Part shown: one piece after another, positions 42,436 to 48,957 of the stretch
Layout of the letters: each line of letters starts with the position of its first letter
Position numbering within the stretch: position 1 is the first letter of the stretch
Source of the DNA: Lachnospiraceae bacterium
GTDB taxonomy: Bacteria > Bacillota > Clostridia > Lachnospirales > Bianqueaceae
Reading direction: 5' to 3'
DNA: 64,000 nucleotides
Assembly: GCA_022794035.1 (NCBI GenBank)
Contig: JAAWDX010000010.1
Span: 1-64,000, forward strand
Position numbers and translations under genes: made by a program
Notes under the pieces: generated by a model
Database searches by the model: none
Told to the model about the DNA's origin: nothing
The model's input: only the letters and a program-made list of their open reading frames with translations

Positions 42436-43788
42436 TTAAAAAGTGAGGGCTTTGAGCGTGCGGCGCAAAAAGAAGAAGCAGAGAAGGAAAGAGGCGACTT
42501 CGGAAATGGGGAAGGCGAGCCAGACCAGATCGAGGACGCCGGAGAGCGAGAGCAGCAGCGCAACGGGCAGGAGCACAAGGAGCTGGCGGGCGATGGATAC
42601 AATCAGGCTGTAAATGCTGCGGCCGAGGGCCTGAAATACAGTGGAGGCAATGATGTCAAAGCCGGCGAGCAGAAAATGCGGCGCAATGATGCGCAGGGCG
42701 GCGCGGCCCATATCCAGCATCGTATCGGAGGCGTTGAAAAGCCGGAGCAGGGCATCCGGAAAGCCTTCAAATAGGATAAAACCAAAAAGCATCAGCAGCG
42801 TAGCATAGAGGATGCTGTAGCGGATGGTCTGATGGATGCGGTCCTTTTTTTGCGCGCCGAAGTTATAGGAGATGATGGGCACCATACCGTTGTTGAGGCC
42901 GAAAACCGGCATGAAGATAAAGCTCTGCAGCTTGAAATATACGCCGAATACGGCAGTGGCGGTGGTGGAAAATACAATGAGAATTTTATTCATGCAAAAG
43001 GTCATCACCGAGCCGATCGAGGACATTAAGATGGAAGGAATGCCAATGGCGTAGATCTCGCGGATGAGCCTGCGCGTGGGTCTGTATTTTTTGAAATGCA
43101 CCTGGATCTCCAGATTGACGCGGTGATTTAAGTAAAAGCCCAAGGCAGCTGCGATGATCTGGCCGGTGATGGTGGCCAGAGCGGCGCCGGCTACGCCCAT
43201 GGCCGGCAGTCCTAAGTAGCCGAAGATGAAGATAGGATCGAGAATGATGTTGATGATGGCGCCGAGCCCCTGCGTAATCATGGTATAGAAGGTGCGGCCG
43301 GTGGCCTGCAGCAGGCGTTCGCCGATGATTTGGCCGAAAAGTCCAAAGGACAGGCTGGTGACGATGGTCATATAGGTGGTGCCATATTCGATGATCTGCG
43401 CATCAGAGGTCTGTACGCGGAAGAAAAATTCAGAGAGTGTGAGGCCCAGCACGGCGAATACCAGAAAACTGGCCAGAGCCAGCAGGATGCCGGTGACGGC
43501 CGTGCGATTGGCGCGCTCCTGGTCCTTAGCGCCGAGGCTGCGGGACAGGATGGCATTTACGCCGACGCCGGTACCGGTCGACACGGCAATCATCAGATTT
43601 TGCACCGGAAAAGCAAGTGATACAGCGGTGAGAGCGTTTTCATTGATCTGCGCGACAAAAATACTGTCGACGATGTTATAGAGTGCCTGTACCATCATGG
43701 AGATCATGATCGGTAGCGACATAGTAATTAAAAGGCGGTTAATCGGCATAACGCCCATTTTGTTTTCTTTTGGAGAAACGACTTGCAT
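42436..43788 (-). CDS. MATE family efflux transporter
   Basis: A 450-residue exporter with about twelve helices. Early motifs VQALYNIVDSIFVAQINENALTA and the mid-protein ATGRTFYTMITQGLGAI and GVYFKLQSFIFMPVFGLNNG are typical of the NorM/MepA-like MATE group. ATG at 43788 is chosen from GAGG six bases upstream. It has a promoter with a terminator-like hairpin between promoter and gene (43826-43902), so it may be regulated by attenuation. It lies 13 bases before the LysR gene on the same strand. Confidence 0.92.
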   Translation of the reverse strand: MQVVSPKENKMGVMPINRLLITMSLPIMISMMVQALYNIVDSIFVAQINENALTAVSLAFPVQNLMIAVSTGTGVGVNAILSRSLGAKDQERANRTAVTGILLALASFLVFAVLGLTLSEFFFRVQTSDAQIIEYGTTYMTIVTSLSFGLFGQIIGERLLQATGRTFYTMITQGLGAIINIILDPIFIFGYLGLPAMGVAGAALATITGQIIAAALGFYLNHRVNLEIQVHFKKYRPTRRLIREIYAIGIPSILMSSIGSVMTFCMNKILIVFSTTATAVFGVYFKLQSFIFMPVFGLNNGMVPIISYNFGAQKKDRIHQTIRYSILYATLLMLFGFILFEGFPDALLRLFNASDTMLDMGRAALRIIAPHFLLAGFDIIASTVFQALGRSIYSLIVSIARQLLVLLPVALLLSLSGVLDLVWLAFPISEVASFLLCFFFLRRTLKALTF

Positions 43789-43825
43789 AGAAATCCTCAC
43801 TTTCAGTTCATCGCATCAATAACAT

Positions 43826-43907: not shown

Positions 43908-43936
43908 TTGTCAAAAAGAGGCGGGCGTGATACAAT
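43908..43936 (+). promoter_or_regulatory. Promoter of the SPFH/TIR cassette
   Basis: TTGTCA (43908-43913), 17 bases, TACAAT (43931-43936); 64 bases before the SPFH start codon. It overlaps back to back with the MATE promoter. Confidence 0.7.
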
Positions 43937-43999
43937 CCTAATATAGAACAACAAGAAGGAGGCGCCTCGGTGTCAAAGCGCTTTGGAATGGAGGATACT

Positions 44000-45166
44000 A
44001 TGAAAAATGTAACACAGATCATTCAATATGAGGGTGACAACAGCACATTTATATGGAAGCACCCTACAGAGGATTTTAACAGCCTGACCCAGCTCATTGT
44101 GCATGAGAGTCAGGAAGCCATTTTCTTTATGAACGGGCAGGCATTGGATCTTTTTACGGCCGGGCGCTACACGCTGGAAACGCAGAACATTCCCCAGATC
44201 GGAAAGCTGCTGAACCGGACGACCGGCGATCAGACGCCCTTTCACTGCGAGGTGTATTTTATCAACAAAACCGAGCAGATGGCAATCAAATGGGGAACCG
44301 ACAGCAAGGTGCAGTATATCGAGCCCACCTATGGATTCCCAATTTCAATTGGCGCCTCTGGAGAGATGAGCCTGCGGGCGGCCGACAGCCGCAAGCTGCT
44401 CCTGAAGCTGGTGGGGACGGAGAGTACACTGGGACGGGAGAAGCTAGTTGGATTTTTTAAGGCGTTTCTGATGACAAGGGTAAAAAGCTATATTGCGCAG
44501 GTCATGAAGGCAAACGCGATCAACATATTTGAGATTGACGAACAGCTGCTCACTTTTTCAGAGGCGATCAAAAGCTTGCTGATAGAAGATTTTGCCGGTT
44601 ATGGAGTGGCATTAGAGCAATTTTTTGTCACCAATATTGTAAAGCCCGACGGGGAGCGGCAGTATGAAAAATTTAAAGAGCTGCATTTCCGTCAGTATGC
44701 CGATATTGCAGAGGCAAAGCTGCATCAGCAGACGGATTTGATTCAGGCACAGACACAGGCGCAAAAAACGGTGATTGCTTCGCAGGCTATGGCGACCAAA
44801 CGCGCACAGGAGGGATATACCTATCAGCAGGAGCGCGGCTATGATGTAGCGGAAAAGGTGGCTCAGAATGAGGCCGTGGGCGAATTTACCAATATGGGCG
44901 TTGGACTTGGCACGATGGCAGGCGTTGGCGGCGCAGTCGGCGGTATGGTTGGCGGCATGATGAAGGAAAGCCTTGGCGCAGCCCAAAAGCCGGTGGCCGC
45001 ACAGGGCTTTTGCGAAAGCTGCGGCGCCAAACTAGCAGAGGGAGCTGCGTTTTGTGAAGAATGCGGCGCGGCAGTGGCCCCTTTGGGCGTTTGTAAAAAT
45101 TGCGGATATTCATTTGAGCGCGCAGGCAAATTCTGCCCGCAGTGCGGTACAAAGAGGGAGGGATAA
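44000..45166 (+). CDS. SPFH domain protein with C-terminal zinc ribbons
   Basis: A 388-residue protein. Residues 5-230 match the SPFH group named after a virion-core-like protein (YdjI-like), starting IIQYEGDNSTFIWKHPTEDF; SPFH proteins assemble into large membrane-associated rings or scaffolds. A Gln/Ala-rich helix (about 235-280) and a Gly-rich hydrophobic segment (about 295-325) follow, then two zinc ribbons: CESCG...CEECG and CKNCG...CPQCG at the end. ATG at 44000 has GGAGG five bases upstream; GTG at 43970 is an alternative. It is first of three genes ending in a TIR protein, so it likely recruits or scaffolds that protein. Confidence 0.85.
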   Translation: MKNVTQIIQYEGDNSTFIWKHPTEDFNSLTQLIVHESQEAIFFMNGQALDLFTAGRYTLETQNIPQIGKLLNRTTGDQTPFHCEVYFINKTEQMAIKWGTDSKVQYIEPTYGFPISIGASGEMSLRAADSRKLLLKLVGTESTLGREKLVGFFKAFLMTRVKSYIAQVMKANAINIFEIDEQLLTFSEAIKSLLIEDFAGYGVALEQFFVTNIVKPDGERQYEKFKELHFRQYADIAEAKLHQQTDLIQAQTQAQKTVIASQAMATKRAQEGYTYQQERGYDVAEKVAQNEAVGEFTNMGVGLGTMAGVGGAVGGMVGGMMKESLGAAQKPVAAQGFCESCGAKLAEGAAFCEECGAAVAPLGVCKNCGYSFERAGKFCPQCGTKREG

Positions 45167-45169
45167 AAA

Positions 45170-45850
45170 ATGAAGAGAAATTTTAAATATTATGGGATGG
45201 CATGGGCAGTTTTAACCGTTCTTTTTCATGTGTTTGCCTTTGTCTTGCCGCATGCCTATACGGCTTCTTTTTGGATTGGCTACGGGACAATTTTGATAGC
45301 GCTGATCGGACAGCTTATATGTGCCTACGTTGTTTTTAAAAAGGAGAATCCACAGGCTCGTTTTTATCATATTCCGCTGATTACCATCAGCTTTGGCGGA
45401 CTGATTGCTTCTTTTGCTATAGGGAGCCTGTGCATGCTGATTTCGGTACTGCCGTACTGGATAGGCACTATTTTATGTGCCCTTGTACTGGCTTTTACCG
45501 CCATCTCTGTGATCAAGGCACAGGCAGCGGCAGAGATGGTCTCAGCGATGGATCAAAAGATCAAAGAACAGACCTTTTTAATGCGCGCTCTCACGATGGA
45601 AGCCGAGGGCCTAATGGCAGCTGCTGCTTCAGAGGCAGGCCGCAAGGCTTGTCAGAAGGTATACGAGGCTTTTCGGTATGCGGATCCAAAAAGCTGTGAG
45701 GAGCTGGCGCCTTTGGAGGACGAAATTAAACAGCGGTTTGCAGAGTTTAAGCTGGCGGCAGGTACGTCAGAGGAGAAAACGGAAGAGGCTGCAGCTGTGC
45801 TGCTGAGGGCGGTGGCGCTTAGAAATGAAAAGTGTAAATTATATAAATAG
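45170..45850 (+). CDS. Membrane protein of the SPFH/TIR cassette
   Basis: A 226-residue protein with four hydrophobic segments in the first 125 residues (about 8-30, 35-58, 72-92 and 96-116) and a helical, charged cytoplasmic C-terminal half rich in Ala and Glu. No known domain is recognised. It begins 3 bases after the SPFH stop, with GGAGGG as ribosome site, and lies 20 bases before the TIR gene. Its role may be to anchor the complex in the membrane; this is inference from position only. Confidence 0.8.
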   Translation: MKRNFKYYGMAWAVLTVLFHVFAFVLPHAYTASFWIGYGTILIALIGQLICAYVVFKKENPQARFYHIPLITISFGGLIASFAIGSLCMLISVLPYWIGTILCALVLAFTAISVIKAQAAAEMVSAMDQKIKEQTFLMRALTMEAEGLMAAAASEAGRKACQKVYEAFRYADPKSCEELAPLEDEIKQRFAEFKLAAGTSEEKTEEAAAVLLRAVALRNEKCKLYK

Positions 45851-45870
45851 GCAGAGGAAAGAAGGACTAC

Positions 45871-48309
45871 ATGGCGATATTTAAGTGCAAGATGTGCGGC
45901 GGCGCGCTGGAGGTAGCGGAGAATGAGACGACAGCGGTGTGTGAATATTGCGGGACCAGGCAGACGCTGCCAAGGTTAAATGATGAGGGTAAGGCGAATT
46001 TGTATGACCGGGCCAATCATTTTCGGCGGAATAATGAATTTGATAGGGCCATGGGGATTTATGAGCAGATTCTGAATGCGGACCCGGAGGACGCGGAGGC
46101 GTATTGGTCGCTGGTGCTGTGCCGCTATGGCATTGAATATGTGGAGGATCCGGATACGCATAAGAGAATCCCTACGGTGAACCGGACGCAGCTTACGTCG
46201 ATTTTTGCGGATCCGGATTATAAGCAGGCGCTGCAGCATGCGGATGGGATGCAGCGCGAGATGTATGAGGAAGAGGCGAAGGCGATCGATCAGCTGGAAA
46301 AGAACATTTTGGCTATCTCAGAGCAGGAGGATTCGTTTGATGTCTTTATTTGTTATAAAGAGACGGATGCGCTGGGCAGTCGTACGCCGGATTCGGTGCT
46401 GGCGAATGAGCTGTATCATGAGCTGACCGAGGAAGGCTTCAAAGTGTTTTTTGCCCGCATCACGCTGGAGAATAAGCTGGGGTATGCCTATGAGCCCTAT
46501 ATTTTTGCAGCGCTTAATTCGGCGAAGGTGATGGTAGTCATCGGCACAAAGCCGGAGTATTTTAATGCGCCTTGGGTGAAAAATGAGTGGAGCCGGTATC
46601 TGGCGCTGATTAAAAACGGCGCGTCAAAGATGCTGATTCCGGCGTACCGGGATATGGATCCCTATGATCTGCCAGAGGAGTTTGCTCATCTGCAGGCGCA
46701 GGATATGGCAAAGCTGGGCTTTATGCAGGATTTGATTCATGGCATTAAAAAGCTGGCGGCAGAGCCGCAAAAAGGGGATGTTAGAAAGCCGGACGCAGTC
46801 AGTGCGGCGCCGGGGGCCGCCCCGCTTTTGCGCAGAGCTTTTTTGTTTCTGGAGGATGGGGATTTTGCGAGCGCCGATGAATACTGTGAGAAGGTGCTGG
46901 ATCTGGAGCCGGAGAATGCGCAGGCTTATTTAGGAAAGCTGCTGTCACGCCTGGAGCTGAGAAAAAAAGAAGAGCTTTCGGGGTGCTGGGAGCCTTTTGA
47001 TGAGGAGCCAGAGTATCAAAAAATCGTTCGCTTTGGAGACAGTGAGCTACTTGCGATTCTGCAGGGATATATCAATGAGATCACCAAGCGCAATGAAGCG
47101 GCTCGGATTGAAAGCATGTATCAGGAGGCAGTCCTTTTGATGAGCAAAGCGAGATGGGAGGATGCCTATCAGGAGGCGGCTCGCAAATTCTCGGAGCTTT
47201 CCGGATATAAGGATTCGGAGGCGCGTATACAGGAATGTCTGGATATGGCAGAGATTATGCGCAAGGACAGCATCTATGCGGATGCAATCAGAACGATGAA
47301 AGATCGGAGTGTGAGAGCCTGTGATTCGGCCATCCGAAAGCTTGAACTGATCCCAGGATGGAAGGATGCAGATGAAAAGCTTTCGGAATGCCGGATTTTA
47401 TTGGAAGAGCTGAAAATAAAGGCTGAAGAAGAGCGAAAGGAGCAAGAGCTGAGAAGAGAGCAAATGCGCCGGAGGGAGCTGGAGAAGGCCAAACGGGCTA
47501 GGATATTTAAGTGGATCAAGATGGGGGCAGCGATTGCGGTAGGTATAGGAGTGATTTTAAAAATTGTATTATCCTCACAGGCAGTGCAGTACAGCAGGGC
47601 GCGGAGCCTGCAGGAAGATGGCCGATATGAAGAGGCAGCGGAGAAATATCTGGCGCTCACGGGCTATAAGGATGCGGCCGATCAAGCGGAAAACTGCTAT
47701 AAAGAGCTGTATGGAGCAGCCTATGATAAACTGAGAAAGCTAGTCCCGGGCGCCACCTATCGGTTTGGAACGTATAACCAGCTGAATGACGCCAATGAAA
47801 AACAAAAAATTGAGTGGATTGTGCTGGAAAAGGAAGGGCGCAATCTGTTGCTGGTAAGCAAATATGCATTAGATGTACAGCCGTATCATACAGAAAGGAC
47901 GGAGGAGCCGATATCGTGGGAGGAGTGCTCTTTGCGGCAGTGGCTGAATACGGTTTTTATCGAAACGGCTTTTGATGAAAAGGAGCGCGAATTTATTTTA
48001 GGCACTAAAGTCGTGCAGGAACGCGAACGGAATACATTTGATTGGATCTTTTTATTGAGCGAAAGTGAAGTTCAGCAGTACTGGAAGGAAAAAATATTGA
48101 AAGGGAGCCTAGAAACGCCTTATACGGAAGCGCTGAATATCTACTGCATAGGACGGCATGTGGAGTGGTGGCTTCGTACGCCGGGCAAGGACCGGGGCTG
48201 TAAGATGCTGGCCTATAATGATATAGACATTTTAGAGAGAGGACAGCCGGTTGATTATAGCCGAGGCGGCGTTCGCCCAGCTATGTGGGTTACGTTTAGC
48301 GCCGAATAA
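45871..48309 (+). CDS. TIR domain protein with zinc ribbon, TPR, membrane helix and DUF6273
   Basis: An 812-residue multidomain protein. Residues 6-27 hold a zinc ribbon (C6, C9, C24, C27); 40-115 a TPR-like helical pair; 153-295 a TIR domain (FDVFICYKETD, ARITLENKLGYAYEPYIFAALNSAKV, WVKNEW). Glu208 lies where NADase TIR domains carry their catalytic Glu. A second TPR-like block covers 318-370, further helices reach 545 with a highly charged coil, and one membrane helix spans about 547-568. The C-terminal 630-812 resembles DUF6273. TIR domains cleave NAD or signal; the zinc ribbon mirrors those of the SPFH partner. Whether it acts in defence is not known. Confidence 0.85.
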   Translation: MAIFKCKMCGGALEVAENETTAVCEYCGTRQTLPRLNDEGKANLYDRANHFRRNNEFDRAMGIYEQILNADPEDAEAYWSLVLCRYGIEYVEDPDTHKRIPTVNRTQLTSIFADPDYKQALQHADGMQREMYEEEAKAIDQLEKNILAISEQEDSFDVFICYKETDALGSRTPDSVLANELYHELTEEGFKVFFARITLENKLGYAYEPYIFAALNSAKVMVVIGTKPEYFNAPWVKNEWSRYLALIKNGASKMLIPAYRDMDPYDLPEEFAHLQAQDMAKLGFMQDLIHGIKKLAAEPQKGDVRKPDAVSAAPGAAPLLRRAFLFLEDGDFASADEYCEKVLDLEPENAQAYLGKLLSRLELRKKEELSGCWEPFDEEPEYQKIVRFGDSELLAILQGYINEITKRNEAARIESMYQEAVLLMSKARWEDAYQEAARKFSELSGYKDSEARIQECLDMAEIMRKDSIYADAIRTMKDRSVRACDSAIRKLELIPGWKDADEKLSECRILLEELKIKAEEERKEQELRREQMRRRELEKAKRARIFKWIKMGAAIAVGIGVILKIVLSSQAVQYSRARSLQEDGRYEEAAEKYLALTGYKDAADQAENCYKELYGAAYDKLRKLVPGATYRFGTYNQLNDANEKQKIEWIVLEKEGRNLLLVSKYALDVQPYHTERTEEPISWEECSLRQWLNTVFIETAFDEKEREFILGTKVVQERERNTFDWIFLLSESEVQQYWKEKILKGSLETPYTEALNIYCIGRHVEWWLRTPGKDRGCKMLAYNDIDILERGQPVDYSRGGVRPAMWVTFSAE

Positions 48310-48377: not shown

Positions 48378-48518
48378 TTAACGTATCTAGGCAGCTTGTA
48401 AGCCCGTTATGCGGGTAAGAAAAGGGCACTTTTAACGGGGCAGATGGATAATTTTACCCGTTATGGTAGGCTGCTTCAGCTGCTCATAACGGGTAAAATA
48501 GCAGATTAGATACGTTAA
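48378..48518. repeat. Nested inverted repeats
   Basis: Outer arms TTAACGTATCTA (48378-48389) and TAGATACGTTAA (48507-48518) are perfect complements; inner arms ATTTTACCCGTTATG (48451-48465) and CATAACGGGTAAAAT (48485-48499) are also perfect. A further CCCGTTATGCGGG copy lies at 48403-48415. The structure fits a small non-coding mobile remnant or a large regulatory fold. No coding frame is visible from 48310 to 48660. Confidence 0.75.
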
Positions 48519-48684
48519 AAGCAGCGCCGCGAGCAGGTGATAACGTTGAAAAACAGACAAAGAGCAGTTAATTTTCGAGCTGCATGGAATGAGTAACTGA
48601 TGATTGTTCAAAAGGGACGGATCTGAATTAGAATTAGAGTCAGAATCAGAATTTGAATTTAAACTGTTCTCTCATTTTCACCTC

Positions 48685-48957
48685 TTGCATTTTTGAAAAG
48701 GCTGGGCTATAATAAATAGCATAACTGCGATGATGAAAGCTGCGGTCTGATGAGCCTTGCAGAGAGCCGGCGGAGGGTGCGAGCCGGCAGGCGGCAGGAT
48801 CTTTCCACTTTCGGAGCAGCCGGTGAAAGCCGGAGGGTCGTATCCTCTAGCATACGAAATGAAGAGGCTGCCTGCAAAGCAATGAGGCAGCAACTTGGGT
48901 GGCAACGCGGAATCCTTTCGTCCCATGGGTACATTGGCTTGGGACGGAGGATTTTTT
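48685..48957 (+). promoter_or_regulatory. Promoter and T-box leader of serS
   Basis: Promoter TTGCAT (48685-48690), 17 bases, TATAAT (48708-48713). The transcript then folds into a T-box leader: the conserved T-box core GGGTGGCAACGCGG is at 48897-48910 and is followed by the terminator ATCCTTTCGTCCC (48912-48924) with GGGACGGAGGAT (48941-48952) and six T. Uncharged serine tRNA should bind and favour the antiterminator. The specifier codon was not assigned with confidence. Confidence 0.9.

What the first reader, a model, noticed from the sequence alone, without database searches (positions are those of the whole stretch)
43908..48309. Three-gene SPFH / membrane protein / TIR cassette with matching zinc ribbons
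An SPFH scaffold protein with C-terminal zinc ribbons, a four-helix membrane protein and an 812-residue zinc-ribbon/TPR/TIR/transmembrane/DUF6273 protein are encoded back to back (gaps of 3 and 20 bases) behind one promoter. Established: TIR domains often cleave NAD or signal in immunity, and SPFH proteins form membrane rings. Inference: the SPFH ring and membrane partner anchor a TIR effector with an outward DUF6273 sensor. Glu208, in the place of the catalytic Glu, is present. I know of no standard description of this set as one system.
Basis: partly seen in the sequence, partly recalled or inferred. Interest (0 to 1): 0.78.

Follow-up and report, generated by a model that had tools for sequence, protein, structure and literature searches.

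The report
SPFH-scaffolded bacterial TIR receptor operon
Gut bacteria of the class Clostridia carry a small accessory gene set in which a predicted ring-forming scaffold protein and a membrane protein travel with a membrane-spanning TIR protein whose inside half is nearly constant and whose outside half is freely swapped, so it looks like a family of bacterial surface receptors wired to an NAD-cleaving immune domain.

Summary
The three genes are real and form a conserved operon. In 393 genomes of the class, 17 of the 20 genomes with the TIR protein also have the SPFH protein (1.3 expected). In named genome contigs the SPFH gene is always on the TIR strand (48 loci, 0 opposite). A congener lacks the cassette at the same site, so it is accessory DNA.

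The TIR protein is more than a TIR fused to DUF6273. A zinc ribbon, TPR and TIR module (about 78% identical between family members) sits inside the cell. A transmembrane helix follows, N-in in 86 of 96 cases. The ectodomain is exchangeable: 46 of 87 are DUF6273, 10 RCC1, 4 LRR, others unknown. The predicted TIR fold is closest to SPARTA, SARM1 and AbTir.

Some relatives carry SIR2, RES, FRG, DUF2971, HEPN, nuclease-like or extra TIR genes in the operon. Best explanation: a membrane immune receptor whose TIR is clustered on an SPFH scaffold and cleaves NAD+. Immune function is inferred, not shown; a YdjGHI-like envelope-stress role is the main rival. No description was found in the open-licence papers searched.

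The parts
43908..43936 (+). sigma-70-like promoter TTGTCA-17-TACAAT with extended -10, upstream of the operon
   Evidence: 8 such sites found, 6.0 expected by chance in the region: weak
44000..45166 (+). gene 1: soluble SPFH protein (Band_7_1) with C-terminal double zinc ribbon; ORF opens at GTG 43970, likely true start ATG 44000
   Evidence: hydropathy scan finds no TM
45170..45850 (+). gene 2: 226-aa membrane protein, four long N-terminal helices then a helical region with a conserved RYSDP motif; no Pfam match, no fold match
45871..48309 (+). gene 3: 812-aa ZnR-TPR-TIR-TPR-TM-DUF6273 protein
45871..45996 (+). N-terminal zinc ribbon, Cys 6, 9, 24 and 27 conserved in essentially all of 128 family members
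46333..46764 (+). TIR domain (residues 155-298), nearest solved folds SPARTA, SARM1, MyD88 and AbTir
46585..46587 (+). codon of Glu239, the residue aligned with the catalytic Glu of known TIR NADases
46492..46494 (+). codon of Glu208: invariant (128/128) but not at the catalytic position
47503..47559 (+). single transmembrane helix (residues 545-563), positive side N-terminal, so N-in/C-out
47842..48294 (+). DUF6273 ectodomain (residues 658-808)
   Evidence: 3.6e-22
42436..43800 (-). left neighbour: MatE-family transporter, directly next to serS in the cassette-free congener
48721..48928 (+). right neighbour: T-box leader of serS (the gene follows; ORF to 50314)

Best explanation
It is an accessory, horizontally exchanged membrane receptor system. 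Shown: a conserved operon of SPFH protein, helical membrane protein and ZnR-TPR-TIR-TM-ectodomain protein; a near-constant inside half with an exchanged outside half; and an intact NADase-type TIR site. Inferred: the membrane protein anchors the soluble SPFH protein, as YdjG/YdjH anchor YdjI. The SPFH oligomer and zinc ribbons gather TIR receptors. Ligand binding or membrane disturbance sensed through the ectodomain (here DUF6273) clusters the TIRs. The clustered TIRs cleave NAD+, either depleting it or making an ADPR-type signal; in some relatives the signal would be read by co-encoded SIR2, RES, HEPN or nuclease-like proteins. The outcome would be growth arrest or death of the attacked cell, most likely as defence against phages or other invaders.
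For: Gene linkage: among 393 class genomes, TIR with SPFH 17/20 (expected 1.3, p about 1e-20), SPFH with MP 20/26. In genome contigs, 22 of 27 loci with full context have same-strand SPFH within 6 kb and 18 have SPFH plus MP; no SPFH on the opposite strand in 78 loci. Accessory status: a same-genus genome has MatE and serS adjacent without the cassette. TIR: model pLDDT 91; best VIA-align Z 17.9 SPARTA, 16.1 SARM1, 15.2 AbTir, all TIR NADases by established knowledge; E239 in 127/128. Receptor logic: 86 of 96 first TMs N-in, 1 N-out; ectodomains 46 DUF6273, 10 RCC1, 4 LRR_5 of 87; 17 label changes among D6273/RCC1/LRR on the TIR tree; among 45 DUF6273 members, median identity 78% inside and 39% outside. 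DUF6273 is the diversified domain of retroelement-targeted phage proteins (PMC11792537), so it fits a ligand binder. Effector-like cargo in relatives: SIR2, RES, FRG, DUF2971 (PDC-S31, 2e-33), RiboL-PSP HEPN, DUF4365, extra TIR. Anchoring precedent: soluble SPFH YdjI needs YdjG/YdjH (PMC8581546).
Against: No direct evidence of NAD cleavage, oligomerisation or phage resistance. The window's copy has no accessory effector, and its neighbours (MatE, LysR, SerRS, HlyIII) are not defence genes. PADLOC knows gene 3 only weakly (PDC-S66, 3e-6) and genes 1 and 2 not at all. The control set of flanking genes also gave PADLOC hits, mostly single generic ones, so the cargo enrichment is only suggestive. 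A TIR-less sister operon (SPFH-MP-ZnR-DUF6591) shows the scaffold pair can serve something else. No match in plasmid or phage records.
Confidence: 0.5

Rival explanations
1. Envelope-stress module. Genes 1 and 2 plus the zinc-ribbon TM protein are a YdjGHI-like membrane surveillance complex; the TIR transmits cell-wall or membrane stress sensed by the ectodomain into a cellular response without any dedicated anti-phage role.
For: YdjI is a soluble SPFH protein with a C-terminal zinc finger, placed at the membrane by YdjG/YdjH and needed for PspA localisation (PMC8581546). YdjG has zinc ribbons and a TM (PMC11237479). Gene 1 belongs to Pfam family PF13421, which also rings in B. subtilis. The TIR-less sister operon keeps SPFH-MP-ZnR-TM.
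Against: No pspA gene was identified in the operons read. Ectodomains are exchanged too freely for a fixed stress sensor. Cassette absent from the congener. Effector-like cargo in relatives.
Confidence: 0.28
2. Non-enzymatic receptor: the TIR is a protein-protein adaptor (as in MyD88) in contact or kin recognition, and ectodomain diversity reflects self/non-self or glycan recognition in the gut.
For: MyD88 and MAL TIRs are also near in fold. Ectodomain swapping and tandem receptor arrays fit recognition of variable partners.
Against: The catalytic-position Glu is kept in 127 of 128 sequences, with SPARTA-type TIRs ranked first. No downstream adaptor was recognised in the operon.
Confidence: 0.12
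3. Host-directed TIR effector that interferes with animal TLR signalling from gut bacteria.
For: The family sits largely in gut and rumen Clostridia; TcpB-type TIRs are known effectors of that kind.
Against: The TIR is on the cytoplasmic side of a TM-anchored protein and travels with a bacterial scaffold operon; no secretion signal or secretion system was recognised in the operon.
Confidence: 0.03
4. Chance neighbours: three unrelated genes lying side by side.
For: None beyond the fact that SPFH and DUF6273 are each widespread.
Against: Linkage statistics, strand bias and repeated gene order across many families.
Confidence: 0.01

Closest known systems
Bacillus subtilis pspA-ydjGHI (YdjI SPFH module)
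   Same: Soluble SPFH protein with C-terminal zinc finger; two membrane partners, one with zinc ribbons and a TM
   Different: No PspA recognised in the operon; the zinc-ribbon partner carries TPR, TIR and an exchangeable ectodomain; gene 2 gave no Pfam match (a TPM domain, as in YdjH, was not found)
SPARTA / SARM1 / AbTir TIR NADases
   Same: TIR fold (Z 15-18) and the conserved W..E catalytic position
   Different: TM-anchored behind a zinc ribbon and TPR; no Argonaute, ARM/SAM or coiled-coil oligomeriser; scaffold supplied in trans by the SPFH protein (inferred)
Thoeris (ThsB/ThsA, type III ThcB)
   Same: TIR protein with, in some relatives, a co-encoded SIR2-like protein; weak NCBIfam hit to ThcB4 (8e-7)
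   Different: No ThsA in the window; TIR is a membrane receptor with ectodomain and SPFH/MP partners; hit far below family cut-off (28 of 220 bits)
Animal Toll-like receptors
   Same: Ectodomain, one TM helix, cytoplasmic TIR; LRR ectodomain in some members
   Different: Reverse domain order (TIR N-terminal), bacterial, extra zinc ribbon and TPR, ectodomain not fixed to LRR; analogy only
DGR-diversified DUF6273 proteins of Faecalibacterium prophages (PMC11792537)
   Same: DUF6273 as a variable domain
   Different: No reverse transcriptase found in this genome, so diversity here arises by exchange and divergence

Membership tests
Catalytic TIR NADase | TIR fold | tested here: met
Catalytic TIR NADase | Glu at the catalytic position of the W..E motif | tested here: met
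   E239, 127/128
Catalytic TIR NADase | NAD+ cleavage | not testable with these tools
   needs biochemistry
SPFH (Band 7, PF13421) family | Profile match above Pfam cut-off | tested here: met
   130.8 bits against 24; 132 bits by genome search
SPFH (Band 7, PF13421) family | Oligomeric ring at the membrane | not testable with these tools
   no complex prediction or imaging available
YdjGHI/PSP module | PspA encoded with the SPFH and membrane genes | not tested
   no PspA profile was run over the loci; none of the operon genes that were scanned was identified as PspA
YdjGHI/PSP module | Zinc-ribbon TM partner | tested here: met
   TIR protein, and ZnR-DUF6591 in the sister operon
YdjGHI/PSP module | TPM-domain membrane partner (YdjH) | tested here: not met
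   gene 2 has no Pfam match above cut-off
Thoeris | ThsB/ThcB family score above curated cut-off | tested here: not met
   ThcB4 28 of 220 bits
Thoeris | ThsA or another known Thoeris effector gene beside the TIR gene | tested here: not met
   neighbours are SPFH, MP, MatE, SerRS; SIR2-like genes only in a few relatives
DGR target protein | Reverse transcriptase in the genome | tested here: not met
   PF00078 search negative

The most novel reading that the evidence does not exclude
A bacterial surface immune-receptor family analogous to Toll-like receptors: a fixed cytoplasmic ZnR-TPR-TIR signalling half, exchangeable ectodomains (DUF6273, RCC1, LRR) held in tandem arrays, and an SPFH ring as signalling platform that triggers NAD+ cleavage, with interchangeable co-encoded effectors.
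Probability: 0.35. Interest if true: 0.9.

Novelty: new variant of a known kind. Interest (0 to 1): 0.74.

Why it matters
As far as I know, the characterised bacterial TIR immune proteins sense from inside the cell. A TIR receptor with an outward, exchangeable sensor would be a bacterial counterpart in layout to Toll-like receptors and would give SPFH proteins a role in immunity. It makes concrete tests possible: is E239 needed, does SPFH cluster the TIR, and what do the ectodomains bind.

Tried and rejected
DGR diversification of DUF6273: rejected, no reverse transcriptase in the genome. Mobile carriage on plasmids or phages: no match in either record collection and only two IMG/VR contigs, one of them with a full-length TIR half. 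Membership in PADLOC systems: only weak hits. Fold of gene 2: no PDB match at E below 0.1. HORMA/TRIP13 reading of the distant SPFH-AAA-TIR operons (L138, L139): the HORMA hit is below cut-off and has no PDB support, and the AAA is closest to p97/CDC48, so it is not used as evidence. Cargo enrichment against flanking genes: suggestive only. The literature check covers only open-licence papers, so absence there is not proof of novelty.

Full report
Observation. Gene 1 is a Band_7_1 SPFH protein with a double zinc ribbon. Gene 2 has no Pfam match. Gene 3 holds TPR, TIR_2 and DUF6273. The SPFH gene more likely starts at ATG 44000 than at GTG 43970, because a GGAGG precedes it and homologues begin there.

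Accessory DNA. In the only congener held (G001), the MatE gene and the serS gene are direct neighbours and the cassette is absent; in the window it lies between them (T-box leader of serS). A palindromic repeat with diverged copies elsewhere in the genome sits between the cassette and the T-box. A second, solitary TIR paralogue lies at C10:89528-91957: 78% identical in the inside half, 34% in DUF6273.

Linkage. In 393 class genomes the TIR family occurs in 20, the close SPFH type in 26 (both at E below 1e-70) and the membrane protein in 22. Overlaps are 17 for TIR-SPFH (1.3 expected) and 20 for SPFH-MP (1.5 expected). These genomes are related and partly fragmented, so the p-values are indicative. 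In 78 named-contig loci, 48 have SPFH near the TIR on the same strand and none has it on the opposite strand; of 27 with full context, 22 have SPFH and 18 have both partners. The order SPFH-MP-TIR recurs in many families.

Receptor anatomy. Across 109 complete, non-redundant family proteins, 81 have exactly one hydrophobic helix after the TIR. In the 96 with at least one, the first helix is N-in by charge in 86, N-out in 1 and undecided in 9 (a simple hydropathy scan, not a trained predictor). After it come DUF6273 (46 of 87), RCC1 (10), LRR_5 (4), Listeria-Bacteroides repeats (4) or unknown sequence. On a tree of the ZnR-TPR-TIR half, the D6273/RCC1/LRR labels need 17 changes; with the multi-TM class added, 26 changes against a shuffled mean of 29.7. 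The tree is quick and weakly resolved: well-supported branches alone force 5 changes for DUF6273 and 4 for RCC1. Among 45 DUF6273 members, median pairwise identity is 78% inside and 39% outside.

TIR enzyme site. The model of residues 1-300 is confident (pLDDT 91). Best structural matches are SPARTA TIRs (Z 17.9, rmsd 2.0, 134 residues), then SARM1 (16.1, 2.3, 122), MyD88 (15.8, 2.7, 131) and AbTir (15.2, 2.3, 131). The profile alignment places WVKNE over the RUN1 WCLDE motif, whose Glu is Ala in the E100A entry 7s2z. So E239, not E208, is the catalytic-position residue. E239 is conserved in 127 of 128 and E208 in 128 of 128. Activity is not shown.

Scaffold half. Gene 1 has no TM. Gene 2 is predicted as helices 3-25, 32-57, 68-90 and 96-151 plus a C-terminal helical region (pLDDT 86.5, pTM 0.60), with no PDB fold match. 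B. subtilis YdjI is a soluble SPFH protein with a C-terminal zinc finger that depends on YdjG and YdjH for membrane placement (PMC8581546). By analogy gene 2, with the TIR protein, may anchor gene 1; this is inference. In relatives without zinc ribbons the SPFH tail reads like a SHOCT motif (read by eye, not tested with a profile). A TIR-less sister operon replaces gene 3 by ZnR-TM-DUF6591.

Accessory genes. Within or just behind the operon, single relatives carry SIR2-like proteins, RES, FRG, DUF2971 (PDC-S31), RiboL-PSP HEPN, DUF4365 nuclease-like proteins or a second TIR. A PADLOC scan of 59 such genes gave more specific defence families than 60 flanking genes did, but the control also had hits. 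This supports, but does not prove, an immune role.

Verdict. A real, conserved, accessory receptor operon with swappable ectodomains and an intact NADase-type TIR. Immune function is the most likely reading (0.5); a YdjGHI-like envelope-stress role is the main rival (0.28). No paper in the searched library describes it.

Noticed in passing
genome G000 C10:89528-91957 (L103:5526-7970), outside the window: Second full-length ZnR-TPR-TIR-TM-DUF6273 gene without SPFH or MP beside it, next to a sulfatase gene.
   Followed up: partly
window 48399-48577: Palindromic sequence (15-nt perfect arms; RNA fold z-score -5.9) with diverged copies on contigs C3, C10 and C14 of the genome; sits at the 3' edge of the cassette.
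   Followed up: partly
window 48721-48928: serS T-box leader scoring 88.2 bits, just under the Rfam gathering score of 93; serS likely starts at ATG 49034, not at the GTG 48899 that opens the ORF.
   Followed up: partly
L089, L090, L092, L095, L096: TIR-less sister operon: SPFH, MP, then zinc ribbon-TM-DUF6591.
   Followed up: partly
L113, L114, L126 and L129: Membrane protein fused to DUF6273 (L113, L114, L126) and SPFH fused to RCC1 repeats (L129): the same outward domains join other operon members.
   Followed up: no
L138, L139, L142: Distant operons with SPFH, AAA ATPase (p97-like in L138) and a large TIR protein; a trypsin-like protease in L142.
   Followed up: partly
L107:2508-4211: Family member with Gly in place of the catalytic Glu and Glu in place of the conserved Trp, possibly a pseudoenzyme.
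   Followed up: no
L205, L218: Three and four tandem TIR receptor genes in one locus.
   Followed up: no
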